A DNA stretch of 60,160 bases from Betaproteobacteria bacterium (GTDB lineage: Bacteria > Pseudomonadota > Gammaproteobacteria > Burkholderiales > Casimicrobiaceae): NCBI GenBank assembly GCA_027492485.1, contig JAPUER010000079.1, forward strand, positions 71,427 through 131,586. The letters run 5' to 3'. The notes under the pieces were generated by a model. The model searched no databases, was not told the DNA's origin, and saw only the letters and a list, made by a program, of their open reading frames with translations. The position numbers and the translations under genes are program-made. This document shows, one piece after another, positions 8,574-60,098 of this stretch; the first letter of the stretch is position 1; each line of letters starts with the position of its first letter.

Positions 8574-8635
8574 GTCGACATTCGCGGAAAAAGGGCTGCA
8601 AACCTTGATATTACTGGGCTTTCGCGGAAAAGCTG
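8574..8635 (-). repeat. GTCGAC palindromic element, copy A (half element)
   Basis: A 62-nt arm. Read on the minus strand it begins CAGCTTTT (8635-8628), has AGG at arm positions 31-33 and ends with GTCGAC at positions 57-62 (8579-8574). The matching second arm, which would extend to about 8518, is not recognisable. It lies 51 nt upstream of the sigma-factor start, and on the other side upstream of the surface-protein gene at 8862. Confidence 0.75.
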
Positions 8636-8861
8636 TATCGGCGATCGCGGCAAGCCGCTCCTGCAGGATACGGGCCTTTCTCCGACTTGCGGGAAACGGC
8701 TAACCACCCCGCCGAAACGCCAAACCGCAGCGAGTTTGCAAAAACTTGCACTTGCGTGATAGGAACGCAACAACCGCACGCTTAGATAGATAACCGCCCC
8801 TGAAGCAACAATGCGGGTGACGGATCGACTTACCGCCGGATTTTGAGCAAGGGGATCGGAG

Positions 8862-11687
8862 ATGGCCATCGCACAGGCTGCACAGAGACAGGGCGACGCC
8901 GGGCGCCTGGGCAAGCGAATGCCGCCGCCGACCGTGCTCGGGCACGCGCGCCAGTACGCGCGATGGGCGCTGCTCGCTGTCATGGGACTGTTCACGGCTG
9001 CCGCGTCGGCGGCCACCTTGACGGTCACCAACCTCAACGACGACGGTGCCGGCTCGCTGCGCGCGCAGATCGCCGCAGCAGCAGCGGGCGACACGATCAA
9101 TTTCAGCGTTACCGGCACAATCAAGCTGGCGAGCACGCTGACGATTTCGCAAAACCTGACGATCAGCGGTCCCGGTGCCGCCAACCTGACTGTTTCGGGC
9201 GAGAACAGCACCACGCGCAATATCTACGTGACTGCCGGCTCGGTGACGATCTCGGGGCTGACCATCGCCAATGGGCACGACAGCAGCACCGGTGGCGCCG
9301 GCCTGCGCAGCGAATCCGGCACGACCGTCAATCTCAGCGATTGCGTGTTCGACTCGAACGAAGCGGCGGGAACGAGTGACGGCGGCGCGATGGCGAGCCG
9401 CGGCACGATCGCGATCACGCGCTGCACTTTCCGGGGCAACTCCGCGGATTTGGGTGGCGCACTCTACCTGGACGGGGCAACCGCAACGGTCACGGACAGC
9501 GTACTCGATTCCAATTCGGCGACGTATGGCGGCGGGATCCTGGCCGGTGCATCGCTTGTCATCAGCAACACGACGTTCAGAAGCAACCGGGCCGATTTTG
9601 ATGGTGGCGCACTCTATCTTGCGGGGACCACCCCGATTCGCTACACCACGATTCGCAACACTACGTTCAGCGGCAACCATGCTGACGGCAATGGTGGCGC
9701 GATCATCTGCACAGGTAACTGCAACCTGGCCGTGCGAAACAGCACATTGGCGGGTAACGATGCGGGCCGGGGCGCTGGCGGGCTTGCGCTCGATGATCCC
9801 AGCGCAAACGCGACCGTCGCAGCCACGATTTTCTCAGGCAATACGGTAGCGACAAGTGGCGCAGGCGCCATTTACTTCCTGGGCATCGGCGATAGCGATT
9901 CTCGCAACAGCCATTACAACCTGTTCTACGGAAACAAAGTCAACGGTGTCGACGACGACACCATCGGTTACGGCACGGCGAACTACGTCTACACCACGAC
10001 CGCGCCACTTGCGGCGCTCGCCGACAACGGCGGCCCGACGCAGACAATGATGCCAGTGGCGAGCAGCGCGGCGCTCGACAGAATCGCAGCCGGTACGCTG
10101 TGCCCGGCCACCGACCAGCGCGGCGTGGCACGCCCGCAGACCGCCGCAGGCTACGCCGGCAGCACGCCTTGCGACATCGGCGCAGTGGAACGACGCGCGG
10201 CTGCCTCTACGCTCGGCGTCACGGTCGTCGGCGCCGGCAGCGTCACGGCGGCTCCCGCGCCGACCGGCACGGGCAGCAGCGGCGGCATCTCGGGCTGCAC
10301 ATCGAGCGGCGGCGCGGCTTGCGCGGCGACCTACTTCGCCGAGAACAACATTCCCGGCATCACCCTCACCGCCAGCCCACCGGCCAGCGGCTACGCCCTG
10401 ATCTGGAGCGGCACGGGCTGCGTGCCTGTGTCGGGCAATTCGCTGCAAGCCATGGTGACGATGGATCAGAACCGCAGTTGCACGGCGACCTATTCGCAGA
10501 TGACGCTGACACTGCCGGTCGGCACCTACGGCGCGCCCTACAACCAGACCCTAAGTGCCAGCGGCGGTACCGCGCCGTACACCTACGTTCTCACCAGCGG
10601 CAGTCTGCCTGCGGGATTGGCGCTGAACAACGCCGTGCTGTCCGGCACACCGGCCGCAGCGGGCAGCTTCGCCAACTTCGTGATCACCGCGACCGACCGC
10701 AACGGTTTCTCTGTCCAACTGTCGACACTGACGATTAACCAAGCAAGTCAAACGATCACCGGCTTCGCACCGACCACGCCGGTTGTGTTCGGCGCGGCGG
10801 CGCAGACCTTGTCCGCCACCGGCGGTGCCAGTGGCAACGCGGTCACGTTCAGCGTCCTCTCGGGGCCATGCAATGTGAGCGGCAGTTCACTGTCGTACAC
10901 GGGGGCCGGCACTTGCGTGATAGCCGCCGATCAAGCCGGCAATGCCAACTACAGCGCTGCACCGCAGGTGACCGCGAGCGTCGTGGTCAATCAGGCCAGT
11001 CAAACGATCACCTTCGGCCCTCCACCCAGCCTGCTGGTGCTCGGCAGCGCCACGGTCACCGCCACCGGTGGCGGCTCCGGCAACGCCGTCATCTTCAGCA
11101 GCACCACGCCCACGATTTGCAGCAGCGGCGGCACGAACGGCGCGACGATCGCCGGCATCCTCGGCGGCAGCTGCGTCATCGCGGCCAATCAGGCCGGTAA
11201 CGCCAACTACACTGCCGCACCGCAGGTGACGCAGACCCTTGTGGTGGGCGCTGCGGGCACCAGCATGACGCTCACGGCTTCCCCGACCGCGATCAACGTG
11301 GGCGAGCGCGTGACCTTCGTCGCCACCGTGACGCCGGTGGCGGCGCAGGCCAGTGCCGCGATGCCCGGCGTCAAGGCCGGCACCCAGATCAACGCCATTC
11401 CCACCGGCAATGTGCTGTTCAGCGATAACGGCAGTCCGATGGCAACCGTTGCGCTCGACGGCAACGGTCAGGCGAGCTACAGCACAACGGCGCTGATCGC
11501 GGGTGTTCACCGCATCACGGCGAGCTATGCGGGGGACGCGAGCAATGTGAGTGCGACGGCGAATGCGGCGGTGGCGGTGCAAGCGCTGCCGGTGCCGGCG
11601 TTGCGCGAGGCGATGCTGGGCATGATGGCATTGCTGCTCGCGGCGGTGGCCGGCTTGGCGCTGCGTGCACGGCGGCGGGTCGCCTGA
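8862..11687 (+). CDS. Exported beta-helix / Ig-repeat surface protein
   Basis: 941 residues from ATG 8862, with AAGGGG at 8849-8854 as ribosome site. A long signal sequence ends near TAAASAA (about residue 50). The mature N-terminus starts ATLTVTNLNDDGAGSLR, a pattern typical of right-handed beta-helix (pectin-lyase-like, 'choice-of-anchor') surface proteins, and continues with short NTTF/SGN repeats to about residue 350. Then follow a CTS...C-x-ATY domain, a putative-Ig domain and two or three QTI-F...ANQAGN-NY repeats of about 85 residues. A terminal Ig-like domain and a hydrophobic helix plus RARRR tail (LPVPALREAML...) resemble an IPTL-CTERM-like signal. The final 200 residues closely match the protein ending at 4920, pointing to duplication. 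Function is likely cell-surface or extracellular; the ligand is unknown. Confidence 0.8.
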   Translation: MAIAQAAQRQGDAGRLGKRMPPPTVLGHARQYARWALLAVMGLFTAAASAATLTVTNLNDDGAGSLRAQIAAAAAGDTINFSVTGTIKLASTLTISQNLTISGPGAANLTVSGENSTTRNIYVTAGSVTISGLTIANGHDSSTGGAGLRSESGTTVNLSDCVFDSNEAAGTSDGGAMASRGTIAITRCTFRGNSADLGGALYLDGATATVTDSVLDSNSATYGGGILAGASLVISNTTFRSNRADFDGGALYLAGTTPIRYTTIRNTTFSGNHADGNGGAIICTGNCNLAVRNSTLAGNDAGRGAGGLALDDPSANATVAATIFSGNTVATSGAGAIYFLGIGDSDSRNSHYNLFYGNKVNGVDDDTIGYGTANYVYTTTAPLAALADNGGPTQTMMPVASSAALDRIAAGTLCPATDQRGVARPQTAAGYAGSTPCDIGAVERRAAASTLGVTVVGAGSVTAAPAPTGTGSSGGISGCTSSGGAACAATYFAENNIPGITLTASPPASGYALIWSGTGCVPVSGNSLQAMVTMDQNRSCTATYSQMTLTLPVGTYGAPYNQTLSASGGTAPYTYVLTSGSLPAGLALNNAVLSGTPAAAGSFANFVITATDRNGFSVQLSTLTINQASQTITGFAPTTPVVFGAAAQTLSATGGASGNAVTFSVLSGPCNVSGSSLSYTGAGTCVIAADQAGNANYSAAPQVTASVVVNQASQTITFGPPPSLLVLGSATVTATGGGSGNAVIFSSTTPTICSSGGTNGATIAGILGGSCVIAANQAGNANYTAAPQVTQTLVVGAAGTSMTLTASPTAINVGERVTFVATVTPVAAQASAAMPGVKAGTQINAIPTGNVLFSDNGSPMATVALDGNGQASYSTTALIAGVHRITASYAGDASNVSATANAAVAVQALPVPALREAMLGMMALLLAAVAGLALRARRRVA

Positions 11688-11697
11688 CGACGCAGGG

Positions 11698-11783
11698 TAG
11701 GCGCGAGCTTGATCGCGCTTCGTGGCCGGAGAGAGCGCGGTCGAGCCCGCGCCTGCCGAAACCTTGCGCGGTCAAGCCCGCGC

Positions 11784-11786
<3 letters not shown>
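11698..11786. repeat. REP-like GTAGGCGCG repeat cluster
   Basis: Three related units of the pattern GTAGGCGCGAGCTTGATCGC, the second and third inverted (GCGGTCGAGCCCGCGCCTGC and a near copy). They lie between the convergent ends of the surface-protein gene and the dehydrogenase gene; the last unit includes the dehydrogenase stop codon. Such units are commonly REP sequences and may act as a bidirectional end of transcripts. Confidence 0.65.
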
Positions 11787-12857
<1,071 letters not shown>

Positions 12858-12947
12858 GGTGGTCCCGATTGCACTGCGATAAAGCGTGCCGGGCAGTCTA
12901 GCGGTCGCGCCTGTCGCGATAGCCATTACCGCGTCATTCGGCGGTTA

Positions 12948-13009
12948 TGGCTTTTTTCGCGTAACCCTTATCCAATAAGGGTACCGGGCTGAAAATTGCG
13001 AAAGTCGAC
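12948..13009 (+). repeat. GTCGAC palindromic element, copy B (half element)
   Basis: A 62-nt arm starting TGGCTTTT and ending in GTCGAC (13004-13009). It contains a perfect 8-bp internal hairpin, ACCCTTAT-cca-ATAAGGGT. The second arm is missing, and a different dispersed repeat begins 32 nt further on. It lies 91 nt upstream of the dehydrogenase start. Confidence 0.75.
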
Positions 13010-13040
13010 TCGGATGTGGAAGACGGCCCGGCGTGCGGAC

Positions 13041-13140
13041 TGTCATCCTGAGCAAAGCGAAGGATCGGGCGGCACACGTCGGGACTGATTGAGGGCTTCG
13101 GCGCATACCAACTGATGTTTCGCTACGCTCAACATGACAA
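13041..13140. repeat. Inverted pair of TCATCCTGAGC...GAAGG dispersed repeats
   Basis: TGTCATCCTGAGC-AAAGCGAAGG at 13041-13063 faces an inverted relative (GTTTCGCTACGCTCAACATGACA) at 13117-13139. Relatives occur at 25585-25666 and 40210-40281. With copy B of the GTCGAC element this accounts for the 12858-13199 gap; no gene is evident there. Confidence 0.65.
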
Positions 13141-13199
13141 ATCATGTGACGACGCCCAATCGAATAAAGGGATTACGCCAAAAGCGGCTGCACCGACGA

Positions 13200-14114
13200 C
13201 TACCCGGCGCGCTCGCCGTCGCGGCCCTCGCGCAGGAACGGCAGTGCCGCCGCCAGCAGCGCGTCGGGCGCTTCCTCGGGAATGTAGTGGCCGCTGGGCA
13301 CTGATCCGCCGCGCACATTGATCGCCACACGCCGCCAGTCGTCGAGAGGCTGAAAGCATTTTTCGATAACGCCGTTGGCGCCCCACAGCACCTGCAGCGG
13401 CTGCGTCACCTTGCGGCCGGCGTCGCGGTCGGCGCGGTCATGGTCGAGGTCGATCGTCGCCGCCGCGCGATAGTCCTCGCAGATCGCGTGCGCGATGCCC
13501 GGCAGCCGGATGCAGCGGCGGTATTCGGCAAGCGCTTCCGGCGCAAAGGCCGCGAGCCCGGCGTGGCGGTTGCCCATCATTTTTTCGATGAAGAACTCCG
13601 GATTCGCCTCGATCATGGTCTCCGGCAGCGGTTCGCGCTGGATCAGGAAGAACCAGTGAAAGTAGGCGCGCGCAAATTCCATCGTGGTCTGCTCGTACAT
13701 CGCCAGCGTCGGCGCGATGTCGAGCAGCGTGGCGCGCGCCACCGAATCGGCGTGATCGACCAGCATGCGATGCGTGACGCGGGCGCCGCGGTCGTGCGCC
13801 AGCACGCGAAAGCGCGCGAAGCCGAGCGATTGCATCAGCGCCACCATGTCGTTCGCCATCTCGCGCTTGCTGTACGGCGCGTGGTTGACCGTGGCGTCGG
13901 ACGGCGGTTTGTCGCTGTCGCCATAGCCGCGCAGATCGGGCGCCACCAGCGTGAAATGCTCGCCGAGCGCGGGCCACACGTTGTGCCAGATCAGATGCGT
14001 TTGCGGATGCCCGTGCAGCAACAACAGCGGCGGTTTGCTGCGATCGTCGGCGATGCGGACGTTGAGCGTGATGCCGTTGGCGGCGATGCGGTGGAGCTGG
14101 CTATTGGCGATCAT
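13200..14114 (-). CDS. Alpha/beta hydrolase, fluoroacetate/haloacetate dehalogenase-like
   Basis: 304 residues from ATG 14114. The residues needed for the FAcD family are visible. The nucleophile is Asp in AHDRGAR (D108), followed by an Arg that would bind carboxylate. The acid D132 is in LLDIAP, the His-Trp pair HWFF (H153/W154) forms the fluoride-binding pocket in FAcD, Tyr215 lies in EDYRAA, and the catalytic His is in PSGHYIPEE (H276). The oxyanion motif HGHPQTH is near residue 34. Members hydrolyse haloacetates to glycolate in the cytoplasm, though many relatives act as generic or epoxide hydrolases, so the substrate is uncertain. It stands alone between unrelated genes. Confidence 0.85.
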   Translation of the reverse strand: MIANSQLHRIAANGITLNVRIADDRSKPPLLLLHGHPQTHLIWHNVWPALGEHFTLVAPDLRGYGDSDKPPSDATVNHAPYSKREMANDMVALMQSLGFARFRVLAHDRGARVTHRMLVDHADSVARATLLDIAPTLAMYEQTTMEFARAYFHWFFLIQREPLPETMIEANPEFFIEKMMGNRHAGLAAFAPEALAEYRRCIRLPGIAHAICEDYRAAATIDLDHDRADRDAGRKVTQPLQVLWGANGVIEKCFQPLDDWRRVAINVRGGSVPSGHYIPEEAPDALLAAALPFLREGRDGERAG

Positions 14115-14149
14115 GAACGCAGTTTATGCCGCGTCGCTGACAGCCAGGA

Positions 14150-14244
14150 CATCTGCGTTTATCTGCGAAATCTGCGCAATCTCCGCCAAGGAGGCATCAA
14201 TTTTTTGACGCAGATTACGCAGATTTCGCAGATTGCCGCAGATT
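14150..14244. repeat. Long imperfect inverted repeat of ATCTGCG units
   Basis: Left arm 14150-14186 carries three ATCTGCG-type units. Right arm 14206-14244 carries the complementary CGCAGAT units. They are separated by about 19 nt that include a T-run. The pair fills the gap between the hydrolase start and the end of the transferase gene and would form a strong hairpin at the end of the leftward transferase operon. Confidence 0.65.
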
Positions 14245-14246
14245 CC

Positions 14247-14885
14247 TTATCGGGAGATCAGCCTGGCTGCAATCGCGCGTTCGGCGTCGGCCGGTTCGTC
14301 GACGTCCCAGCGCATCGGCATCTCGGCCCAGCGCTGTCCCGCGGCTGCGAGCGCTGCCCGCGTCTGTGCCATGACGGCTGCGGTGCTCCAGGCGATCCCG
14401 GTGAACGGCGTCGCGTTCGGCGCGTTGCTGCCGACCAGCACATAGCCGCCGTCCTCGGCAGGTGTGAACACCCAATGGCAGTCGGCGGACAACGCCCACG
14501 ACGCCGCACACAGATCATCGGCGGTCAGCGCCGGGCAGTCGGTGCCGATCAGCATCGCCGCGTCGCCGTTCGCGGCGAGGTTTGCCAGACAGTGCTGCAT
14601 GCGCTGGCCGAGATCGGCGCCCTGCTGCGCGTGCACCGGCATCGCGAAGCGTTCGCTCCAGTCGCGGATCGCGGCGTGTTGCGCGTCGTCCGCGACCCAC
14701 AGCGTGGCTTCGGCGCCGAGCCGCCGGCACGTGGTGGCGACGGTCGCCAGCGTGCGTTCGGCCAGCTCGCGGTAGATCGCGACGGCGCCGTCCGCGCCGA
14801 AGGCCGGAATCAGCCGCGTCTTGACGCGACCGGCGACCGGGGCCTTGCAGAAGACGGCGATGCGCGTGCTCGACTGCGTGGCCAT
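14247..14885 (-). CDS. rSAM/selenodomain-associated transferase 1 (TIGR04282-like, DUF2064)
   Basis: 212 residues from ATG 14885. The start shares one base with the upstream gene's stop (TGATG), so the genes are coupled. The N-terminus has the nucleotide-sugar-transferase-like signature IAVFCKAPVAGRVKTRL. The central LIGTDCPAL and C-terminal FTPAEDGGYVLVG segments are typical of the GT-A-like DUF2064 family. This family is characteristically encoded beside the rSAM/Cys-rich protein and transferase 2, as here. In related organisms the set is linked to arsenosugar- or selenium-related sugar metabolism. The acceptor in this organism is unknown. Confidence 0.85.
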   Translation of the reverse strand: MATQSSTRIAVFCKAPVAGRVKTRLIPAFGADGAVAIYRELAERTLATVATTCRRLGAEATLWVADDAQHAAIRDWSERFAMPVHAQQGADLGQRMQHCLANLAANGDAAMLIGTDCPALTADDLCAASWALSADCHWVFTPAEDGGYVLVGSNAPNATPFTGIAWSTAAVMAQTRAALAAAGQRWAEMPMRWDVDEPADAERAIAARLISR

Positions 14886-15565: not shown

Positions 15566-15597
15566 GGGGGCAGTGTAGTCACTGCACTCGGCGGCAA

Positions 15598-15622
15598 ACC
15601 TCCCCTGCGCAGCAGGGGAGGT
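15598..15622. repeat. Perfect 11-bp hairpin between rSAM gene and transferase 2
   Basis: ACCTCCCCTGC, a 3-nt loop and the exact complement. It lies in an 83-nt gap inside an otherwise tight leftward operon. On the minus strand a short TTTG follows, so it could attenuate transcription or protect the upstream mRNA, or simply be a REP unit. Confidence 0.65.
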
Positions 15623-15648
15623 GGCGCGCAGCGCCGGAGGGGTCACGC

Positions 15649-16626: not shown

Positions 16627-16684
16627 GGGAGTCCTGCAAAAGGCGGCAAGCGCGTTGCCGTTGATGCAATGGTCGCGCGGCGGA

Positions 16685-17837: not shown

Positions 17838-17954
17838 CAGCTTTTCGGTTGAAGCGTTATCCAATATAGGCACAGGCTTGATTTAGCAGATAGTCGACTT
17901 TTGATGAAAAACGGCTTTTAGCCCAATGCGAACGCCGTTTTACCTGAAAAGCTG
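17838..17954 (+). repeat. GTCGAC palindromic element, copy C (full, 117 bp)
   Basis: Terminal inverted repeats CAGCTTTTC (17838-17846) and GAAAAGCTG (17946-17954) are exact complements, and GTCGAC sits at 17893-17898. The left arm (61 nt) contains GCGTTATCCAATATAGGC and the right arm (62 nt) contains, inverted, GCATTGGGC followed by GGCTaaaAGCC. It is the cleanest full copy. It lies between the divergent DUF3617 and Bug-protein genes and explains most of the 17671-18054 gap. Confidence 0.85.
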
Positions 17955-28237: not shown

Positions 28238-28355
28238 CAGCTTTTTGCTGAATGCCTTATCTGAAAAGGGCTCAACACCAAATACGGCGGTAAGTCGACT
28301 ATTGATGAAAATGGCCCGTATGCCCAATGCTGACGGCACTCTTTGGCAAAAGATG
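28238..28355 (+). repeat. GTCGAC palindromic element, copy D (full, 118 bp)
   Basis: Left arm 28238-28299 runs from CAGCTTTT to GTCGAC (28294-28299), with GGGC at arm positions 31-34. Right arm 28294-28355 ends AAAAGATG, one base off the consensus end, and contains the inverted GCATTGGGC. Arm lengths are exactly 62 nt each. It fills the gap between ddl and the upstream leftward gene. Confidence 0.82.
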
Positions 28356-46923: not shown

Positions 46924-47041
46924 CAGCTTTTTTGTAGAGGGCGCATTCGCATTGGGCAGCTAGCCTGTTTTTAGCCAAAGTCGACTTTCGGTAAATAAGT
47001 CGTTTTTGCCCAATGTAAATGCGCATCTTGCGTAAAAGTCA
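46924..47041. repeat. GTCGAC palindromic element, copy E (full, 118 bp)
   Basis: Left arm CAGCTTTT (46924-46931) to GTCGAC (46980-46985). The right arm ends in AAAAGTCA at 47041. Both arms are 62 nt and both are of the CATTGGGC type, so this copy is the most symmetrical. It lies between the ddpX start and the end of acnB. Confidence 0.82.
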
Positions 47042-47163: not shown

Positions 47164-49761
47164 TTACGCCGCGACGGACTCCGCGCGCTCGACGAAATCG
47201 GGCATTTCGTTGAAGTTCATGTAGCGGTAGATCTTGCTGCCGTCGGCGTTGATGGCGGCAGCGTCGGCGAGGTATTCCGCCTTGGTCGGGATGCGGCCCA
47301 GCTTGGAGCACACCGCGGCCAGCTCGGCGCTGCCGAGATAGACGTTGGTGTTCTTGCCGAGCCGGTTCGGGAAGTTGCGCGTGCTGGTCGACATCGCCGT
47401 GGCGCCTTCCTTGATCTGCGCCTGGTTGCCCATGCACAGCGAGCAGCCCGGCATTTCCATGCGCGCGCCGGCGGTGCCGAAGGTGTTGTAGTGGCCTTCT
47501 TCGGTGAGCTGGTGAGCGTCCATCTTGGTTGGCGGCGCCAGCCACAGCTTCACCGGAATGTCGCGCTTGCCTTCGAGCAGTTTGGCGGCGGCGCGGAAGT
47601 GGCCGATGTTGGTCATGCAGGAGCCGATGAACACTTCGTCGATCTTGGCGCCGGCGACGTCGGACAGCGTCTTGGCGTCGTCCGGGTCGTTCGGGCAGCA
47701 GACGATCGGCTCGGTGATCTCGTCGAGGTTGATGTCGATGACGGCAGCGTACTCGGCATCGGCGTCGCCCTTGAGCAGTTTCGGATTGGCGAGCCAGTCT
47801 TCCATCGCCTTGACGCGACGGGCGATCGAACGCGCGTCCTGATAACCGTCGGCAATCATCGCCTTGAGCAGCACGATGTTCGACTTCAGGTATTCGACGA
47901 TCGGCGCTTCGTTCAACGCCACGGTGCAGCCGGCGGCGGAGCGCTCGGCCGAGGCGTCGGCCAGCTCGAAGGCCTGCTCGATCTTGAGATCCGGCAAGCC
48001 TTCGATTTCGAGGATGCGGCCGGAGAAGATGTTCTTTTTGCCCTGCTTGGCAACGGTCAGCAGGCCCGCCTTGATGGCGTAAAGCGGGATCGCGTGCACC
48101 AGGTCGCGCAGCGTGACGCCGGGCTGCATCGTGCCCTTGAAGCGCACCAGCACCGATTCCGGCATGTCGAGCGGCATCACGCCGGTCGCCGCCGCGAAGG
48201 CAACCAGACCGGAGCCGGCCGGGAACGAGATGCCGATCGGGAAGCGGGTGTGGCTGTCGCCGCCGGTGCCGACCGTGTCGGGCAGCAGCATGCGGTTCAG
48301 CCACGAGTGGATGATGCCGTCACCCGGACGCAGCGCGATGCCGCCACGGGTCGAGATGAAATCCGGCAACTCATGGTGCATCTTGACGTCGACCGGCTTC
48401 GGATACGCCGCCGTGTGGCAGAACGACTGCATCACGAGGTCGGACGAGAAGCCGAGGCAGGCGAGATCTTTCAGCTCGTCGCGGGTCATCGGGCCGGTGG
48501 TGTCCTGCGAGCCGACCGAAGTCATCTTCGGTTCGCAGTAGGTGCCCGGACGCACGCCCTTGCCTTCCGGCAGACCGCAGGCGCGGCCGACCATCTTTTG
48601 CGCCAGCGAGAAGCCCTTGCCGGAATCCACCGGTGCCTGCGGCAGGCGGAATAGCGTCGACGCGGGCAGACCCAGCGCCTCGCGCGCCTTGCTGGTGAGG
48701 CCGCGGCCGACGATCAGCGGAATGCGGCCGCCGGCGCGCACTTCGTCGAGCAGCACCAGGCTCTTCAGTTCGCTTTCGGCGATGGTCTTGCCGTCCTTGC
48801 TGGCGGTGACTTTGCCGGTGGCGTGATCGATGGCGAGCGCTACCGTGTCGCCCATGTTCATCTGCGACACGTCGATCTCGACCGGCAGTGCGCCGGCGTC
48901 TTCCATCGTGTTGTAGAAGATCGGCGCAATCTTGCCGCCGAGGCAGACGCCGCCGAAACGCTTGTTCGGAATGAAGGGGATGTCTTCGCCGGTGAACCAG
49001 AGCACGCTGTTGGTGGCCGATTTGCGCGAGGAGCCGGTGCCCACTACGTCGCCGACGTAGGCGACCACGTTGCCTTTGGCGCGCAGGTCCTGGATGAACT
49101 TCACCGGGCCGCGTTTGCCGTCTTCTTCCGGCGTGATGCCGTCGCGCTTGTTCTTGAGCATCGCCATCGCGTGCAGCGGGATGTCCGGGCGGCTCCAGGC
49201 GTCCGGCGCCGGCGACAGGTCGTCGGTGTTGGTCTCGCCGGTGACCTTGAGCACCGTGATCGTGATCGACTTCGGCACTTCCGGACGGCTGGTGAACCAC
49301 TCGGCATCGGCCCAGCTTTGCAGCACCGCCTTCGCGTTGGCATTGCCCTTGTCGGCCTTTTCCTTCACATCATGGAACTGGTCGAACATCAGCAGCGTTT
49401 TCTTCAGGCCGTTGGCTGCGATGGCGCCCACCTGCGCGTCGTCGAGCAGGTCGACCAGCGGCGAGATGTTGTAGCCGCCGAGCATGGTGCCGAGCAGTTC
49501 GGTTGCTTTCTCGCGCGACAGCAGCGACGTTTTTTCGGTGCCGTGGGCAACGGCGGCGAGGTAGCTGGCCTTGACCTTGGCGGCATTGTCGACGCCGGCC
49601 GGAACGCGATTGCTGATGAGATCGACGAGGAAATCACCTTCGCCCGCCGGCGGGTTCTTGATCAGCTCGATTAACTCGGCAACCTGCTTGGCGGTCAGCG
49701 GCAGCGGGGGAACGCCGACGGCAGCGCGTTCGGCGAGGTGTTTGCGATAGGCTTCTAGCAT
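47164..49761 (-). CDS. acnB: Aconitate hydratase B / 2-methylisocitrate dehydratase
   Basis: 865 residues, the usual AcnB length, from ATG 49761 with AGGAGA upstream. It has an N-terminal HEAT-like domain (MLEAYRKHLAERAAVG). The swivel domain precedes the catalytic domains, as expected for AcnB rather than AcnA. Fe-S cysteines are in FIGSCMTNIGHFRAA and GCSLCMGNQAQ. It interconverts citrate and isocitrate in the TCA cycle and can also hydrate 2-methyl-cis-aconitate to 2-methylisocitrate, which links it to the prp genes upstream. It lies 45 nt after the PIN toxin gene. Confidence 0.96.
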   Translation of the reverse strand: MLEAYRKHLAERAAVGVPPLPLTAKQVAELIELIKNPPAGEGDFLVDLISNRVPAGVDNAAKVKASYLAAVAHGTEKTSLLSREKATELLGTMLGGYNISPLVDLLDDAQVGAIAANGLKKTLLMFDQFHDVKEKADKGNANAKAVLQSWADAEWFTSRPEVPKSITITVLKVTGETNTDDLSPAPDAWSRPDIPLHAMAMLKNKRDGITPEEDGKRGPVKFIQDLRAKGNVVAYVGDVVGTGSSRKSATNSVLWFTGEDIPFIPNKRFGGVCLGGKIAPIFYNTMEDAGALPVEIDVSQMNMGDTVALAIDHATGKVTASKDGKTIAESELKSLVLLDEVRAGGRIPLIVGRGLTSKAREALGLPASTLFRLPQAPVDSGKGFSLAQKMVGRACGLPEGKGVRPGTYCEPKMTSVGSQDTTGPMTRDELKDLACLGFSSDLVMQSFCHTAAYPKPVDVKMHHELPDFISTRGGIALRPGDGIIHSWLNRMLLPDTVGTGGDSHTRFPIGISFPAGSGLVAFAAATGVMPLDMPESVLVRFKGTMQPGVTLRDLVHAIPLYAIKAGLLTVAKQGKKNIFSGRILEIEGLPDLKIEQAFELADASAERSAAGCTVALNEAPIVEYLKSNIVLLKAMIADGYQDARSIARRVKAMEDWLANPKLLKGDADAEYAAVIDINLDEITEPIVCCPNDPDDAKTLSDVAGAKIDEVFIGSCMTNIGHFRAAAKLLEGKRDIPVKLWLAPPTKMDAHQLTEEGHYNTFGTAGARMEMPGCSLCMGNQAQIKEGATAMSTSTRNFPNRLGKNTNVYLGSAELAAVCSKLGRIPTKAEYLADAAAINADGSKIYRYMNFNEMPDFVERAESVAA

Positions 49762-50609: not shown

Positions 50610-50623
50610 CGACATACCTACAA

Positions 50624-51810: not shown

Positions 51811-51834
51811 GCGCAGCCTATCCTGCCAATCGCG

Positions 51835-53031: not shown

Positions 53032-53044
53032 GACTGTTCTCGCT

Positions 53045-53082
53045 CCCTCCCCTTCAAGGGGAGGGTTGGGGTGGGGATGGGG
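53045..53082 (+). repeat. 38-bp inverted repeat, left copy (3' side of DUF559 gene)
   Basis: CCCTCCCCTTCAAGGGGAGG followed by a G-rich tail. It is complementary, with one mismatch, to 53469-53506. It encodes the last residues (TPSPPQPSP) and the TGA stop of the DUF559 protein, and is itself an internal palindrome around TTCAA. Confidence 0.9.
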
Positions 53083-53446: not shown

Positions 53447-53468
53447 GCTTCATTCCGATGTCGCTTGA

Positions 53469-53506
53469 CCCCATCCCCACCCTAACCCTCCCCTTGAAGG
53501 GGAGGG
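53469..53506 (-). repeat. 38-bp inverted repeat, right copy (5' side of DUF559 gene)
   Basis: Complement of 53045-53082 with a single mismatch. It lies 22 nt upstream of the DUF559 start and 3 nt beyond the acnD stop. The two copies bracket a unit of 462 bp. Confidence 0.9.
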
Positions 53507-53509
53507 GAC

Positions 53510-56122
53510 TTATGCGGACTGTCCTTCCAGAAAATCCTTCGCAAACCGCTGCAACACGCCGCCTGCCTCGTAGACGGAGATTTCTTCTGCGGTGTCGAGA
53601 CGGCAGGTGACGGGCACGTCCACGGTTTCGCCGTTCTTGCGGCGGACGACCAGCGTCAGCGTTGCGCGGGGCGTGCGCTCACCGATCACGTCGAAGGTTT
53701 CGGTGCCGTCGATGCCTAGCGTCAGGCGTGTGGTGCCCGGTTTGAACTCCAGCGGCAGCACGCCCATGCCGATCAGGTTGGTGCGGTGGATGCGCTCGAA
53801 GCCTTCCGCCACGATCGCCTCCACGCCCGCGAGGCGCACGCCCTTGGCCGCCCAGTCGCGCGAGCTGCCCTGACCGTAGTCCGCCCCGGCGACGATGATC
53901 AGCGGCTGCTTGCGATCCATGTAGGTTTCGATCGCTTCCCACATGCGCATGACCTGGCCGTCGGGTTCCACGCGGGCGAGCGAGCCTTTCTTCACCGCGC
54001 CATCGACCACCGCCATTTCGTTCACCAGTTGCGGATTGGCGAAGGTGGCGCGCTGCGCCGTCAGGTGGTCGCCGCGGTGCGTGGCGTAGGAGTTGAAGTC
54101 TTCCTCCGGCAGGCCCATCTTCGCGAGATATTCCCCGGCGGCGCTGTCAAGCAGGATCGCGTTCGACGGCGACAAATGGTCGGTGGTGATGTTGTCCGGC
54201 AGCACGGCCAGCGGACGCAGGCCGCGCAAGGTGCGCTCGCCGGCCAGCGCGCCTTCCCAGTACGGTGGGCGTCGGATGTAGGTGCTCGGCGCGCGCCAGT
54301 CGTAGAGCGGGCTGATCTTCTCGCCGGTCGCGGCGGCGAAGGTGAACATCGGCTCGTAGACCTTGCGGAATTGCTCCGGCTTCACGCTCTTGGCGATCAC
54401 AGCGTCGATTTCCTCGTCGCTCGGCCAGATGTCCTTCAGCGTGACCGGCTTGCCGCTCGGATCGGTGCCGAGCACGTCCTTCTCGATGTCGAAACGCACC
54501 GTACCGGCGATAGCGTAGGCAATCACCAGCGGCGGCGAGGCGAGGAAAGCCTGCTTGGCATACGGATGGATGCGGCCGTCGAAGTTGCGGTTGCCCGACA
54601 GCACGGCGGTGGCGTAGAGATCGCGGTCGATGATCTCCTGCTGGATCTTCGGATCGAGCGCACCGCTCATGCCGTTGCAGGTGGTGCAGGCGAAGGCGAC
54701 GATGCCGAAGCCGAGCGCCTCCAGATCGGGCAGCAGCTTCGCTTCTTCAAGATAGAGCTGCACGGCTTTCGATCCCGGCGCCAGCGAGGTCTTCACCCAC
54801 GGCTTGCGCGTGAGACCGCGAGCGTTCGCATTGCGCGCGAGCAGGCCCGCCGCGATCACGTTGCGCGGGTTCGAGGTGTTGGTGCAACTGGTGATGGCGG
54901 CGATGACGACGGCACCGTCCGGCATCAGGCCCTGCGCGGCTTCGGCCTTGCCGGCCGCGAGTTTCGCTTCGTCGGCGATGCCGCGTTCGGCGAGAGCGGA
55001 GGTGGGCAGCCGTTTATGCGGATTCGACGGCCCCGCCATGTTGCGCACTACGGTCGAGAGATCGAAGCGCAGCGTGCGTTCGTATTCCGCCGTTTGCAGC
55101 GCGTCGGCCCACAGTCCTGCCGTCTTCGCGTAGTTCGCCACCAATGCCACCTGCGCATCGTCGCGACCGGTCAGGCGCAGATAGTCGAGCGTCTTGTCGT
55201 CGATGAAGAACATCGCCGCCGTGGCGCCGTACTCCGGGGCCATATTCGAGATCGTGGCGCGATCGCCCACGGTGAGCGCGGACGCGCCTTCGCCGCGGAA
55301 CTCGAGATAGGCGCCGACCACTTTCTCCTTGCGCAGGAATTCGGTCAGCGCCAGCACCACGTCGGTGGCGGTGATGCCCGGTTGCGGCTTGCCCGAGAGC
55401 TCGACGCCCACGATGTCCGGCAGCCGCATCCAGGAGGCGCGGCCGAGCATTACGTTCTCGGCCTCCAGTCCGCCGACGCCGATGGCAATGACGCCCAGCG
55501 CGTCCACATGCGGCGTGTGGCTGTCGGTGCCGACGCAAGTGTCGGGATAAGCCACGCCGTCCTGCACACCGATCACCGGGCTCATCCGCTCCAGATTGAT
55601 CTGGTGCATGATGCCGTTGCCGGCCGGGATGACGTCGACGTTCTTGAATGCCTTCTTGGTCCACTCGATGAAGTGGAAGCGGTCCTCGTTGCGACGATCT
55701 TCCACCGCGCGGTTCTTGGCGAAGGCATCCTTGTCGAAGCCGCCGTATTCCACGGCGAGCGAGTGATCGACGATCAACTGCACCGGCACCACGGGATTGA
55801 CCTTGGCCGGGTCGCCGCCCTGATCGGCGATGGCGTCGCGCAGGCCGGCGAGATCGACCAGCGCCGTCTGGCCGAGGATGTCGTGGCAGACCACACGCGC
55901 TGGAAACCAGGGAAAGTCCAGCTCGCGCTTGCGCAGGATGAGCTGCTGCAGGTAATCGTTGATCTTCGCCGGCTCCGCCTTGCGCACGATGTTCTCGGCG
56001 TGCACACGGGCGGTGTAGGGCAGCTTCGCCCAGGCGCCCGCTTGCAGGCGATTGACGGCGGCGGCGGCATCGAAGTAGTCGACACCGGCACCGGGGAGTG
56101 CTTTGCGGTCAGTGCTGTTCAT
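53510..56122 (-). CDS. acnD: Fe/S-dependent 2-methylcitrate dehydratase AcnD
   Basis: 870 residues from ATG 56122, in the AcnA-type architecture. Visible motifs are VVCHDILGQTALVDLAGLRDAI, PVQLIVDHSLAVEYGG, GTDSHTPHVDALGVIAIGVGGLEAE, Fe-S ligands in AAITSCTNTSNP and FACTTCNGMSG, and the swivel-domain GADYGQGSSRDWAAKG. The length and the pairing with prpF and prpC identify AcnD rather than housekeeping AcnA. It dehydrates 2-methylcitrate, producing an isomer that PrpF must convert. AcnB is encoded separately at 47164. Confidence 0.93.
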   Translation of the reverse strand: MNSTDRKALPGAGVDYFDAAAAVNRLQAGAWAKLPYTARVHAENIVRKAEPAKINDYLQQLILRKRELDFPWFPARVVCHDILGQTALVDLAGLRDAIADQGGDPAKVNPVVPVQLIVDHSLAVEYGGFDKDAFAKNRAVEDRRNEDRFHFIEWTKKAFKNVDVIPAGNGIMHQINLERMSPVIGVQDGVAYPDTCVGTDSHTPHVDALGVIAIGVGGLEAENVMLGRASWMRLPDIVGVELSGKPQPGITATDVVLALTEFLRKEKVVGAYLEFRGEGASALTVGDRATISNMAPEYGATAAMFFIDDKTLDYLRLTGRDDAQVALVANYAKTAGLWADALQTAEYERTLRFDLSTVVRNMAGPSNPHKRLPTSALAERGIADEAKLAAGKAEAAQGLMPDGAVVIAAITSCTNTSNPRNVIAAGLLARNANARGLTRKPWVKTSLAPGSKAVQLYLEEAKLLPDLEALGFGIVAFACTTCNGMSGALDPKIQQEIIDRDLYATAVLSGNRNFDGRIHPYAKQAFLASPPLVIAYAIAGTVRFDIEKDVLGTDPSGKPVTLKDIWPSDEEIDAVIAKSVKPEQFRKVYEPMFTFAAATGEKISPLYDWRAPSTYIRRPPYWEGALAGERTLRGLRPLAVLPDNITTDHLSPSNAILLDSAAGEYLAKMGLPEEDFNSYATHRGDHLTAQRATFANPQLVNEMAVVDGAVKKGSLARVEPDGQVMRMWEAIETYMDRKQPLIIVAGADYGQGSSRDWAAKGVRLAGVEAIVAEGFERIHRTNLIGMGVLPLEFKPGTTRLTLGIDGTETFDVIGERTPRATLTLVVRRKNGETVDVPVTCRLDTAEEISVYEAGGVLQRFAKDFLEGQSA

Positions 56123-56267
56123 GGCGATTGTGGATTGATTGACATCGGGCCACCGGCACGCGAGTGCGGCAGCAAAGACAAAACGGTGGCGCCGCGCAGG
56201 CCACGAGGGGCAAGGCGCGGTTTGCTACCGTCGGGAGTGGTGTCGGCGGCGGCGGACGCCGCGCGGC

Positions 56268-56813
56268 CTATTGCGAGAGCAGGAAGTCGACCCGCTTGGA
56301 GAATTCGATGCGTGCCGGCTCGCCCTTCGATTTGCCGAGCGCTGTCTCCACCGCTTCGCGCAATGCGAGCAGTTCCTTCGCCGACATGGCGCGCTCGACT
56401 TTCATTTGCAGCATCACGCCACGCAGGCCGAGGTCCGCCACCGCACGCACGAATTCCGGGTACAGCAGACGCTGCTGCGTGGCCTCGTCCACCGTGTGCG
56501 TCGCCGTCACCGGGGCCACATCGGCCATCGGTTCGTGCAGCACTTCCTCGGGCGCCGGCGTCGGTGCCGCAGTGACGCGACCACCCAGGCCCGTCAGCGT
56601 CGGCACCACTTCGACCAGTCCGAGCGTGACCAACTGCTGGAAGCCGTCGCGACCAGCCGGCAGGCGGGACGCAATCTCGCTGTACTCGGCGGCAGTCTTG
56701 TCGCCGTAGATCATGAGCAGCAGGGTACGCAATTGCGCCGGTAAATCCTGACGGCGATCCGCCAACGCTGCGCGACCATTGGCGCTTTTCTGTATGCGAT
56801 CTCCGGGTTGCAT
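56268..56813 (-). CDS. Hypothetical protein with a possible N-terminal winged helix
   Basis: 181 residues from ATG 56813. No family recognised with certainty. The N-terminal part (LPAQLRTLLLMIYGDKTAAEYSEIASRLP...LVTLGLVEVVP) looks like a degenerate winged-helix domain. A Pro/Thr/Ala linker follows, then a helical C-terminal domain (YPEFVRAVADLGLRGVMLQMKVERAMSAKEL). There is no signal peptide. It sits between prpC and acnD, so it is likely co-transcribed with them. A regulatory or assembly role in propionate use is only a guess. Confidence 0.6.
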   Translation of the reverse strand: MQPGDRIQKSANGRAALADRRQDLPAQLRTLLLMIYGDKTAAEYSEIASRLPAGRDGFQQLVTLGLVEVVPTLTGLGGRVTAAPTPAPEEVLHEPMADVAPVTATHTVDEATQQRLLYPEFVRAVADLGLRGVMLQMKVERAMSAKELLALREAVETALGKSKGEPARIEFSKRVDFLLSQ

Positions 56814-56892
56814 GGTCGTAGTTGACGTGACTCAGAATGTTCTGCGAGTCTACGCCTAACAACCATTCAACGGGAGACTTTTGCGTCATGAG

Positions 56893-58050
56893 TTACCTGC
56901 GTTGTTGCAGAGGCACAAATGCGAGATCGTCCGGCCCGACGTAATTGGCGCTCGGGCGGATGATCTTGCCGTCGATGCGCTGCTCGATCACGTGGGCGCT
57001 CCAGCCGCTGGTGCGGGCGATCACGAAAAGCGGGGTAAACATCGCCGTCGGCACGCCCATCATGTGATAGCTCACCGCGCTGAACCAGTCGAGATTCGGG
57101 AACATCCTCTTGATATCCCACATGACCGTTTCCAGACGCTCGGCGATGTTGAACATCTTCATGTCGCTCGCCTCTTTCGAGAGAGTGCGCGCGACTTCCT
57201 TGATGACCTTGTTGCGCGGGTCGCTGACGGTGTAGACCGGGTGACCGAAACCGATGACCACTTGCTTGGCTTCTACGCGCGCCTTGATGTCGGCCTCGGC
57301 TTCGTCCGGCGTGTCGTAGCGCTTTTGCGTTTCGAACGCCACTTCATTGGCGCCGCCATGCTTCGGGCCGCGCAGTGCGCCGATGCCGCCGGCGATGGCG
57401 CTGTACATGTCGGAGCCGGTGCCGGCGATGACGCGGCAGGTGAAGGTGGACGCGTTGAATTCATGCTCGGCGTAGAGGATCAGCGAAGTGTGCATCGCCT
57501 TCACCCAGCTCTGCGGCGGGCGCTTGCCGTGCAACAGATGCAGGAAGTGGCCGCCGATCGAATCCTCGTCGGAATCGATCTCGATGCGCTTGCCGTTGTG
57601 GCTGAAGTGATACCAGTACAGCATCGCCGGGCCGAGCGAGGCCATGAGCTTGTCGGCAATGTCTTTCGCGCCCGGATGATTGTGGTCATCCTTCTCGGGC
57701 GACACGCAACCCATGACCGAAACGGCCGTACGCATCACGTCCATCGGATGCGCCGACGGTGGCAATTGCTCCAGCGCCACGCGCACCGCAGCCGGCACGC
57801 CGCGTAGCGATTTCAACTTAGTTTTGTAGCCAGCCAGTTCAGCCACGGTTGGCAGCTTTCCGTGCACTAGCAGATAAGCGATTTCCTCAAACTCGCAGGC
57901 GTCGGCGACATCAAGAATGTCGTAGCCGCGATAGTGCAAGTCGTTACCGGTGCGGCCCACTGTGCACAGCGCAGTGTTGCCGGCGGCGGTGCCGCTGAGG
58001 GCTACGGATTTTTTGACTTTGGGGCCGGGTGTAGTGGGGGTGTCAGACAT
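56893..58050 (-). CDS. prpC: 2-methylcitrate synthase
   Basis: 385 residues from ATG 58050 with GAGGA upstream; a start at 58137 would run through the palindrome upstream and is not favoured. Citrate-synthase family motifs are [22 protein letters not shown], the catalytic His in [25 protein letters not shown], and a late Asp region ([10 protein letters not shown]). The YHFSHNG and [11 protein letters not shown] segments are typical of PrpC. It condenses propionyl-CoA with oxaloacetate in the cytoplasm. It is separated from prpB by an unrelated lipoprotein gene. Confidence 0.95.
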
Positions 58051-58118
58051 TTTGTTTTCCTCGTAGGGTGTGGTTCGCCGCACCCAAATTGATACCAACC
58101 AAATTGTTCTTTGCCAGG

Positions 58119-58140
58119 ATCGTGCGATGAATCGCACGAT
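58119..58140. promoter_or_regulatory. Perfect 10-bp palindrome upstream of prpC
   Basis: ATCGTGCGAT-GA-ATCGCACGAT lies 69 nt upstream of the prpC start and 9 nt after the lipoprotein stop. No T-run follows on the minus strand, so an operator is more likely than a terminator. The regulator is unknown. Confidence 0.5.
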
Positions 58141-58148
58141 ACGTGCTA

Positions 58149-58937
58149 CTACTGAAACGTTGGTTCGGCAATGCGGACCGCGAGCAATGCAGCCAAATCC
58201 GCATTGGCTTTCAACGTCCCCGAATACAGACGACTTGCGTTGGCGATCAGCGCGCTATCGTCACCGATCACGACTTGCGAAGCGTCCAAGCGCACAAGGC
58301 GCGCGAACTTGACGCTGCCAGTGCCGGCTAACGCGGTGAGCATGGGTGCGCTTAACATCAACTCCACGTCCGCCCCAAACGCACTCTTGATTCCAGGATC
58401 CGAAGTCGCAACCCAGCCCACGTTGAGCGCCTTGCCGTCACCGCGCCGTCTAACGGCGTACGCCGCCGCGAGAGTAGGAAAGAACCGCTTGTCATACTCG
58501 CCGATGTGACCAGCGTACCTAACTTCTAGAACCAGCTGTGACGAGACGCTTGTCGAATCGAATCTGAATTTGCTGTTGAAACCATCGTAGGCGTGTGGGT
58601 ACTCAACCGTCACTGTGTACCCCTGTTGTTTGAGACTTTCCGCGAGTGTGACCAAAAAGCTCGACGGCAGCGCCAGCGGCTCTTTTCCGGCCGCTTCGTA
58701 AAATTTGGTCGTTCGCGAATCGGTCTGGCCCTCGATGGAATTTCTACCAGCGATACCGCCAGCCCCTCCGAGCGACATCATTGCCGCGCTCTTGACCGCA
58801 GCGGTAGTAGTCGTGTCACAACAAACAATTGTTATCGACTTCGCCGCTCTGATTTCACTTCGAATTTCGGCTGGGTTTGTATTGCATCCCGCTAGGATGC
58901 TTCCGAGTGCCACGAGCACGAGGTATCTATTGAACAA
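58149..58937 (-). CDS. Lipoprotein of unknown function
   Basis: 262 residues from a TTG start at 58937, with GGGGGA just upstream. A signal sequence with lipobox ILAGC (Cys18) is followed by a short helical region, a CCDTT motif, a Gly-rich [14 protein letters not shown] segment that may be membrane-associating, and an alternating-strand domain ([30 protein letters not shown]). No known family is recognised. Base composition looks less GC-rich than in the neighbours and a non-ATG start is used, suggesting a later insertion between prpB and prpC. Confidence 0.65.
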
Positions 58938-58953
58938 CTTGTCCCCCTAGCTG

Positions 58954-58974
58954 AAAAAGCCCCGGGTCCCGGAG
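58954..58974 (-). terminator. Possible intrinsic terminator after prpB
   Basis: On the minus strand CTCCGG-GAC-CCGGGG (58974-58960) is followed by CTTTTT. It lies about 120 nt after the prpB stop and before the lipoprotein gene, so it may separate prpB from prpC transcription. The stem includes one T-G pair. Confidence 0.5.
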
Positions 58975-59093
58975 AAGCGAAACGCGTCCGCTGTTCCCCG
59001 TGGCATGCGGGCTTGTATCAATTTGCCTTGACGCGCTGCGCTTCTCAAGGCTACGTTTGACACGGATGAACATGGCGGCGGGCATAGCCGTTG

Positions 59094-59981
59094 TTACGCC
59101 TTCTTCGCCGCAAACAACGCATCGAGGTGATTCTCGAACGCGTGGTAATTGATGCGGTCGTAGAGTTCCATGCGGGTTTGCATGGTGTCGAGGACGTTCT
59201 TCTGGTGGCCGTCGCGGCGGATGGCTTGAAAGACGTTTTCGGCGGCCTTGTTGGCGGCGCGGAAGGCGGAGAGCGGGTAGAGCACCATGCCGCAGCCGGC
59301 GCTCTTCAACTCCTCCACCGAGAACAGCGGCGTCTGGCCGAATTCGGTGATGTTGGCGAGCACCGGCACCTTCACCGCGTCAACGAACTTGCGGTAGGTC
59401 GGCAGGTCATACGCGGCTTCGGCGAAGATGGCGTCCGCGCCAGCCTCGACGCACTTGATGGCGCGCTCGATGGCGGCGTCGACGCCGAAGGCCTGGATGG
59501 CATCGGTGCGGGCGATCAGGAAGAAATCGGGGTCGATCTTGGCGTCGGCGGCGGCCTTCACGCGGTCCACCATTTCGTCCGTCGTGACGATTTCCTTGCC
59601 CGGACGATGGCCGCAGCGCTTGGCGCCGACCTGGTCTTCGATGTGGCAGGCCGCGGCGCCGAACTTGATCAGCGATTTCACGGTGCGGGCGATGTTGAAC
59701 GCGCTGGGGCCGAAGCCGGTGTCGATGTCCACCATCAGCGGCAGGTCGCAGACGTCGGTGATGCGGCGCACGTCGGTCAGCACGTCGTCGAGGTTGTTGA
59801 TGCCCAAGTCCGGCAGACCGAGCGAGCCGGCTGCGACGCCACCGCCGGAAAGATAGATCGCCTTGAAGCCGGCGCGCTTGGCGAGCAGCGCGTGATTGGC
59901 GTTGATGGCGCCGACAACTTGCAGGGGGGATTCGGCTTTGAGGGCCGCGCGGAAGGCGGCGCCGGGAGAGGGCAGGGACAT
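59094..59981 (-). CDS. prpB: 2-methylisocitrate lyase
   Basis: 295 residues from ATG 59981; GAAGGA lies 7 nt upstream, which decides for this start over a TTG at 59996. Isocitrate-lyase superfamily signature KRCGH (121-125) carries the catalytic Cys123. [17 protein letters not shown] near residue 45, metal-site VDIDTGFG (84-91), [17 protein letters not shown] and [11 protein letters not shown] are also visible. It cleaves 2-methylisocitrate to pyruvate and succinate, completing propionate oxidation. Copy F of the GTCGAC element ends exactly at its start codon and contains its ribosome site. Confidence 0.96.
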
Positions 59982-60098
59982 CAGCTTTTCCTTCAACGCC
60001 CCATTGCATCGGGGCTCAGCGCGGAATTAACCGCTTGTCGACTTTTCCAGTTTTTACGTGCCAAGCCCTGATTGAATAAGGCTTGCACGAAAAAGCTG
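59982..60098 (-). repeat. GTCGAC palindromic element, copy F (full, 117 bp)
   Basis: CAGCTTTT at 59982-59989, GTCGAC at 60037-60042 and AAAAGCTG at 60091-60098. Arms are 61 and 62 nt. Relative to copies C and D it is inverted: the GCCTTAT-type arm is on the right. The left end touches the prpB ATG (59981), so the element carries the prpB leader, including the Shine-Dalgarno sequence. Confidence 0.85.

What the first reader, a model, noticed from the sequence alone, without database searches (positions are those of the whole stretch)
8574..60098. A dispersed 117-118 bp palindromic element with a central GTCGAC and fixed internal spacing
Seen directly: ten arms from six loci (8574-8635, 12948-13009, 17838-17954, 28238-28355, 46924-47041, 59982-60098) align with almost no gaps. 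Arm positions 1-8 are CAGCTTTT or a near match, 31-34 are RGGC-like, and 57-62 are GTCGAC. Arm length is 61 or 62 nt in every case. There are two arm types. One has TTAT at about positions 20-23 (GCCTTAT...GGGC, often a small hairpin); the other has CATTGGGC. Three full copies pair one of each type, and copy E pairs two of the second. All are intergenic, and each lies just upstream of a leftward gene. It resembles no IS end or REP I can name. It could be a MITE-like element, a nucleoid or segregation site, or a structured 5' leader.
Basis: seen in the sequence. Interest (0 to 1): 0.85.

Follow-up and report, generated by a model that had tools for sequence, protein, structure and literature searches.

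The report
Evenly spaced 118-bp palindromic chromosome sites
This bacterium and most of its genus carry many 118-base-pair mirror-symmetric DNA sites between genes, roughly one per 11,000 bases in this genome, which look like landing pads for an unknown DNA-wrapping protein whose recognition word has changed between species while sites stayed in place.

Summary
This genome holds an estimated 370 copies, one per 11 kb; an arm pattern matches 152 times, its reversed control 0 times. Length is about 118 bp. None of 190 copies in five species lies in a gene; they favour convergent gaps and gene 3' ends, not promoters. In this genome they are more evenly spaced than class-matched random gaps (not significant in G011+G007). 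No target duplication, no coherent base-pair covariation, no trace of copying. Relatives carry copies at orthologous sites, motif positions kept, the rest nearly randomised. The architecture recurs in the genus in dialects: the inner palindrome differs, sometimes at orthologous sites, while length, ends and a central TYRA step persist. A+T content oscillates at about 10 bp. Best reading: a selected double-stranded protein site, probably DNA-wrapping, with a chromosome-organising role. The binder is unidentified and the function inferred. MITE, REPIN, RNA and DNA-uptake readings fit worse; a gyrase site remains possible.

The parts
8574..8635 (-). A: single arm (central GTCGAC at 8574-8579), beside an ECF sigma factor gene (7887-8573)
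12948..13009 (+). B, left arm (GTCGAC at 13004-13009), between an Iso_dh gene (11784-12926) and ORF 13200-14114
13128..13187 (-). probable outer part of B's right arm (weak, score 19), separated from the left arm by an insertion with its own inverted repeat
17838..17954 (.). C: full element, 117 bp (GTCGAC at 17893-17898), divergent gap beside a DUF3617 gene
28238..28355 (.). D: full element, 118 bp (GTCGAC at 28294-28299), upstream of a D-Ala-D-Ala ligase gene; element at the orthologous place in L058
46924..47041 (.). E: full element, 118 bp (GTCGAC at 46980-46985), 3' side of acnB (47164-49761)
59982..60098 (.). F: full element, 117 bp (GTCGAC at 60037-60042), directly before the ATG of a PEP-mutase/isocitrate-lyase-family gene; orthologues in L058 and, with a changed centre, L056

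Best explanation
The element is a dyad-symmetric binding platform on double-stranded DNA, about 118-122 bp long, with three palindromic contact regions: an inner palindrome in each arm centred on arm position 26, and a central palindrome around TYRA. It is framed by terminal CAGCTTTT boxes and has an A-tract at arm positions 45-48 that may be AAA or TTT. I infer that an unidentified, fast-evolving dimeric DNA-binding protein assembles on the three palindromes and wraps the DNA. About 370 such complexes, roughly one per 11 kb and preferentially at convergent gaps and gene 3' ends, would partition or absorb supercoiling, or serve as anchor points for chromosome folding. Shown: anatomy, near-fixed length, copy density, position bias, even spacing in this genome, conservation of motif and of sites, dialect change, absence of coherent base pairing, A+T periodicity. 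Inferred: the protein, the wrapping, the topological role.
For: Arms: 135 hits versus 0 reversed. Neighbour-base dependencies (AAA or TTT at 46-48) and no coherent Watson-Crick covariation at the inner inverted repeat in 97 arms of this genome or 54 of G012. Sharp edge two bases outside the ends, no target duplication in 62 elements. 0 of 190 elements in genes over five species. Convergent gaps occupied 55 of 116 versus 125 of 631 others, P 1.5e-9; tandem copies nearer the upstream stop in 63 of 92, P 2.5e-4. One point per occupied gap (66 gaps): spacing CV 0.56 versus 0.91+-0.09 in gaps matched for class and length, 0 of 5000 draws as low. 15 orthologous pairs: motif positions 484 of 662 identical, non-motif 178 of 494, flanks 947 of 1601. 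Conserved adjacent gene pairs, this genome versus G005: 10 both, 0 only here, 1 only there, 96 neither; versus G012, of another dialect: 4, 2, 0, 35, P 1.5e-4. Length 118 in 18 of 18 G011 and 13 of 15 G007 full elements, 108-128 allowed. A+T period 9.85-10.1 bp in the four species fitted (shuffle P).
Against: No binding protein was found. Even spacing was not significant in G011+G007 (P 0.24) and modest in G005 (P 0.02; fraction under 3 kb P 0.08). Convergent bias alone is not significant in G011 (P 0.12) or G007 (P 0.07), and vanishes in gaps of 320 bp or more; divergent gaps hold some copies too. The periodic component explains 17-29% of the variance in A+T profile per species, flank-only fits differ between species (9.65-10.95 bp), and G011's best period over 4-25 bp was 7.2, not 10. 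Two of 17 placed C16 copies have no G005 counterpart, and sharing with G011 (1 both, 0, 1, 23) and G007 (0, 1, 0, 23) is too thin to judge. Gene calls are from my own simple caller, not benchmarked. G005 elements were found with this genome's matrix, which inflates motif identity, and at least two of the 15 pairs are uncertain orthologues.
Confidence: 0.55

Rival explanations
1. Strong DNA gyrase sites: gyrase wraps about 130 bp symmetrically and cuts 4 bp apart at the dyad; the elements would be hard-wired gyrase loading sites at transcription-unit ends, like BIME-2.
For: The E. coli gyrase motif is 130 bp, symmetric, with phased G+C content, and BIME-2 elements are enriched in gyrase cuts (PMC6379681: passages, section 23, section 30 part 1). 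Element length, dyad, phased A+T and 3'-end bias agree.
Against: The published gyrase period is 10.75 bp in the flanks; here the whole-arm fit is 9.85-10.1, though flank-only fits scatter. The gyrase motif is degenerate, whereas here each arm has a sharp palindrome that changes between species, which a near-universal enzyme does not explain. Other genera of the family lack the pattern. In E. [quoted passage not shown]
Confidence: 0.15
2. Old MITE/ERIC-like mobile repeat that spread in the genus ancestor and decayed.
For: Intergenic, dispersed; size close to the 127-bp RU-1 intergenic repeat (PMC2759123, search listing and abstract start). Eleven single arms among 73 copies.
Against: No target duplication; no pair of arms more alike (max 0.758) than motif-simulated arms (0.726-0.790); motif positions kept while the rest randomises; even spacing; dialects at shared sites.
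Confidence: 0.13
3. DNA-uptake (transformation) signal: species dialects and even spacing are driven by biased uptake and recombination.
For: Uptake sequences have dialects (PMC3630211, search listing) and significant even spacing has been reported for them (cited in PMC1939737, passages). Dialects occur here at shared sites.
Against: Uptake sequences are short, not palindromes, and often in genes (65% in H. influenzae, 35% in N. gonorrhoeae; PMC1939737 passages); here 118 bp, palindromic and 0 of 190 in genes.
Confidence: 0.06
4. RNA structure: bidirectional terminator, mRNA 3' end or 5' leader.
For: 3'-end and convergent bias; one locus carries an intrinsic-terminator-like hairpin inside the right arm in five species. 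A few single column pairs reach z 3.6 and the best 4-pair stem 3.7 among all combinations.
Against: No coherent stem at the inner repeat and none shared between G000 and G012; A-tract may be AAA or TTT; 0 Rfam hits in the window at gathering score.
Confidence: 0.05
5. REPIN-type repeat mobilised by a RAYT (Y1) transposase.
For: Inverted doublet with an inner inverted repeat; Y1_Tnp matches in 15 of 17 genus genomes, none in G009 and G016, which also lack the fixed-length ends pattern.
Against: No covarying hairpin; an arm lies in 2 of the 10 Y1 loci examined (of 44 matches), near the background density; no near-identical copies.
Confidence: 0.03

Closest known systems
Gyrase sites / BIME-2 in E. 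coli
   Same: about 120-130 bp, symmetric, phased base composition; BIME-2 intergenic (PMC6379681)
   Different: here sharp sequence motifs with species dialects, near-fixed length, whole-arm period nearer 10.0
ERIC / RU-1 (127-bp enterobacterial intergenic repeat)
   Same: similar length, multiple intergenic copies (listing; palindromy recalled)
   Different: copies here share nothing beyond the motif and show no covarying fold
REPINs / RAYT
   Same: inverted doublets, extragenic, tied to particular lineages (PMC3116915 passages)
   Different: REPINs form hairpins with common compensatory changes and lie near RAYT genes; neither seen here
DNA uptake sequence dialects (Neisseriaceae)
   Same: dialects between related species, many sites (listing)
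   Different: length, palindromy, never in genes in the sample
MatP/matS and Noc/NBS chromosome-organising sites (recalled, no call)
   Same: many dispersed palindromic sites for one chromosome-organising protein
   Different: matS and NBS are short (recalled: about 13-16 bp); these are 118 bp and occur on each of the four long contigs read

Membership tests
MITE / ERIC-like | terminal inverted repeats | tested here: met
   CAGCTTTT ... AAAAGCTG
MITE / ERIC-like | target-site duplication | tested here: not met
   62 elements, k 2-12: exact matches 12 against 9.7 expected at k 2, 1 or 0 at k 3-12
MITE / ERIC-like | copies related by copying | tested here: not met
   97 of 135 arms (those of 62 nt), maximum identity within motif-simulated range
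MITE / ERIC-like | parent transposase with the same ends | tested here: inconclusive
   only Y1_Tnp was searched as a transposase family; no association
REPIN / RAYT | hairpin with compensatory changes | tested here: not met
REPIN / RAYT | element beside RAYT gene | tested here: not met
   arm in 2 of 10 Y1 loci examined, of 44 matches; C60 gene about 2.5 kb from the nearest element
Gyrase site | symmetric, ~120-130 bp, phased composition | tested here: met
Gyrase site | 10.75-bp period | tested here: inconclusive
   whole-arm fit 9.85-10.1; flank-only fits 9.65-10.95
Gyrase site | gyrase binding and cleavage | not testable with these tools
   needs Topo-Seq
DNA uptake sequence | short non-palindromic word, often in genes | tested here: not met
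   118-bp dyad, 0 of 190 in genes
Structured RNA | covarying base pairs | tested here: not met
Chromosome-organising protein site | cognate DNA-binding protein | not tested
   no candidate looked for beyond Y1_Tnp; genome not available as a file
Chromosome-organising protein site | many conserved, non-randomly placed sites | tested here: met

The most novel reading that the evidence does not exclude
A previously undescribed bacterial chromosome-architecture system: an unknown protein builds hundreds of nucleosome-like, dyad-symmetric wrapped complexes on 118-bp sites about every 10 kb, preferentially at transcription-unit ends, and protein and sites have co-evolved so that the recognition word was rewritten genome-wide between sister species while sites stayed in place.
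Probability: 0.4. Interest if true: 0.95.

Novelty: new variant of a known kind. Interest (0 to 1): 0.82.

Why it matters
If the reading holds, this is a natural, sequence-encoded set of wrapped or insulating sites in bacteria. It would make two open questions directly testable: whether ~10-kb supercoiling domains (a size recalled for E. coli) are hard-wired in some chromosomes, and how a DNA-binding protein and several hundred of its sites can change specificity together. Comparison of dialects at orthologous sites gives a ready-made experiment of nature.

Tried and rejected
Hairpin, cloverleaf and terminator folds: rejected, no coherent covariation. Target duplication and palindromic flanks: none. 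RAYT/REPIN link: Y1_Tnp searched in 17 genomes, 44 matches, 10 loci examined, no association. A stem 32-42/33-41/34-40/35-39 with a T-tract as terminator: no signal. Matched arm classes within elements of this genome: too few class II arms (9 of 126; Fisher P 0.13) to judge. Orthology with G007 (0 both, 1 only here, 0 only there, 23 neither) and G011 (1, 0, 1, 23): uninformative. My first view that G002, G007, G010, G011, G014 and G016 lack elements was wrong for G011, G007 and G014 and perhaps G010, which have other dialects. G002 gave three half-arm matches against one reversed and 3 ends-pattern matches against a control of 6. G009 and G016 gave 0 with the ends pattern, although G009 had 11 arm-pattern matches against a control of 1. 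The G011 single-arm model gave 26 reversed matches against 96, so only paired full elements were used there. Family-level (47 other-genus genomes, 0-1 matches) and order-level scans (250 genomes; outside the genus at most 2 matches) found no other genus above background, but they would miss dialects with other ends. Literature searches: no listed title or abstract start described an equivalent; lists were capped and subscription papers are missing from the library.
Full report
Observation. The window lies in a 4.12-Mb, 83-contig assembly; the pattern CAGCTTTT-n(40-52)-AGTCGAC matches 152 times (75 forward, 77 reverse) and its reversed control 0 times. In 710 kb of the same genome, part of it chosen around pattern matches, a position matrix finds 135 arms above 18 bits and none in reversed sequence: 62 full elements of 116-119 bp and 11 single arms. 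On four long contigs read wholly or nearly so (C16, C53, C60, C58; 787 kb) there are 71 elements, about one per 11 kb, so roughly 370 per genome (extrapolation mine).

Anatomy. Reading an arm inward: CAGCTTTT (positions 1-8), AA (15-16), an inner inverted repeat close to GCCCATT-n-AATGGGC centred on position 26, an A-tract at 45-48 that may be AAA or TTT, and AAGTCGAC to the dyad. Conservation stops two bases outside the ends, and there is no target duplication in 62 elements. The strongest column dependencies are mostly between neighbours; complementary positions of the inner repeat vary largely independently in 97 arms of this genome and 54 of G012. The largest single-pair scores are z 3.6 among all column pairs and do not form a shared stem. 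That is the signature of double-stranded DNA read by a symmetric protein, not of a hairpin.

Position. With a home-made gene caller, 0 of 190 elements in five species lie in genes: G000 105, G005 26, G012 27, G011 18, G007 14. Convergent gaps of at least 110 bp are occupied 55 of 116 times, all others 125 of 631 (P 1.5e-9); by species (G000, G005, G012, G011, G007) P is 0.0016, 0.00016, 0.00037, 0.12 and 0.07. The bias is strong in gaps under 220 bp and absent at 320 bp or more. In tandem gaps 63 of 92 elements are nearer the upstream stop than the next start. In the window all six copies sit upstream of a leftward gene, but this is local.

Spacing. On the four contigs, taking one point per occupied gap (66 gaps), the spacing CV is 0.56 against 0.91+-0.09 for gaps matched by orientation class and length (0 of 5000 draws as low), and 3% of intervals are under 3 kb against 21% expected. 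Counting every element the CV is 0.59 against 0.90 and 6% against 22%. G005 gives P 0.02 (under 3 kb, P 0.08); it is partly orthologous to C16 and so not independent. G011 plus G007 give P 0.24; against unmatched gaps two G011 stretches gave P 0.04 and 0.03, G007 0.50.

Selection and inheritance. Of 29 C16 elements, 17 could be placed on the fetched G005 stretch by flanking synteny; 15 have a G005 element there and 2 do not, 11 lie in a non-syntenic 107-kb block and 1 lacks anchors. In conserved adjacent gene pairs between this genome and G005 (median 90% protein identity) elements are present in both 10 times, only here 0, only there 1, neither 96 times. Three single-arm copies are single in both species; a fourth is full in G005. 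Over the 15 pairs, motif positions are identical at 484 of 662 sites, intermediate 212 of 383, non-motif 178 of 494, flanks (partly coding) 947 of 1601. G005 copies were found with this genome's matrix, so motif identity is somewhat inflated, and at least two pairs (C16:5107 and C16:209848) are uncertain orthologues. Among 97 arms no pair is more alike (maximum 0.758) than in motif-simulated sets (0.726-0.790), so there is no trace of recent copying.

Dialects. In 12 of 17 genus genomes the ends pattern AGCTTTn(103-105)AAAGCT is clearly above its control; G002 (3 against 6), G007 (4 against 3) and G010 (5 against 3) are near background and G009 and G016 have none. G007 has elements by its own matrix. 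None of 47 other-genus genomes of the family exceeds background, and outside the genus no genome of the 250 drawn from the order has more than 2 matches. The inner palindrome differs by species: GCCCATTnnAATGGGC-like here and in G005; AACGACC...GGTCGTT in G012 and G008; GCCwTATGAAATAwGGC in G011; CGCCCAATTTAATTGGGCG in G007. Length stays 118 (18 of 18 in G011; 13 of 15 in G007; 108-128 allowed) and the centre stays TYRA-like. All 54 tested G012 arms fall in the GGTC class; here 117 arms are GGGC class and 9 GGTC class, by models seeded from these same sets. Sites are shared across this change: among 41 gene pairs conserved with G012, both 4, only here 2, only there 0, neither 35 (P 1.5e-4). 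At one locus (C16:127092) elements of three dialects, each with a similar terminator-like hairpin in the right arm, occupy the same gap in G000, G005, G012, G008 (whose centre is degenerate) and, by coordinates between matched flanks, G011.

Wrapping. A+T content against distance from the dyad oscillates with best period near 10 bp: 9.9, 9.8, 10.1 and 10.1 in G000, G012, G011 and G007 (column-shuffle P 0.0005, 0.0005, 0.012, 0.0005); over 4-25 bp G011's best period was 7.2. The mean profile fits 9.95 bp (R2 0.33; block-shuffle P 0.005), with fits from flanks alone scattering between 9.65 and 10.95. This is what wrapped DNA can look like; E. coli gyrase sites show it at 10.75 bp within a 130-bp motif (PMC6379681, section 23 and part 1 of section 30 read).

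Interpretation. A conserved, vertically inherited, dyad-symmetric dsDNA site, evenly spaced in this genome and biased to transcription-unit ends, most likely binds a dedicated protein that wraps DNA and organises or insulates the chromosome. I have no candidate for the protein. Gyrase is the main named alternative; its universality does not explain dialects. Mobile-repeat, uptake-signal and RNA readings each fail at least one test (membership table).

Identity. The closest kin found by AcnB are unnamed Betaproteobacteria/Burkholderiales MAGs. Contig lengths suggest that G002 is JAAFJO01 (668,142 bp) and G013 is JAFEDD01 (93,225 bp).

Noticed in passing
window 13041-13139; also C16:20769 (L010, base 769): A second dispersed inverted repeat (TGTCATCCTGAGCGAAGCGAAGGATC / TGTCATGTTGAGCGTAGCGAAACATC), six half-repeat matches in 1.1 Mb, lies inside element B and next to the single arm at C16:20901, so it may interrupt two of the 118-bp elements.
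   Followed up: partly
C16:127092 (L015:7092-7208) and counterparts in G005, G012, G008, G011: An intrinsic-terminator-like hairpin (AAAAACGGGCCCGAAGGCCCGTT and variants) lies inside the right arm in each species; G013 keeps a terminator-like hairpin there but no element.
   Followed up: partly
G009 and G016: The two small genomes (2.5-2.6 Mb) of the genus lack both the fixed-length ends pattern and any Y1_Tnp match; perhaps genome reduction.
   Followed up: no
window 59981-59982; 8573-8574: Two elements abut an ATG codon directly, so any ribosome-binding site would lie in the element; for A my gene caller preferred a later start.
   Followed up: no
L056:40-300: The orthologue of element F keeps the left end and both inner palindromes but has a different centre (no GTCGAC).
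   Followed up: no
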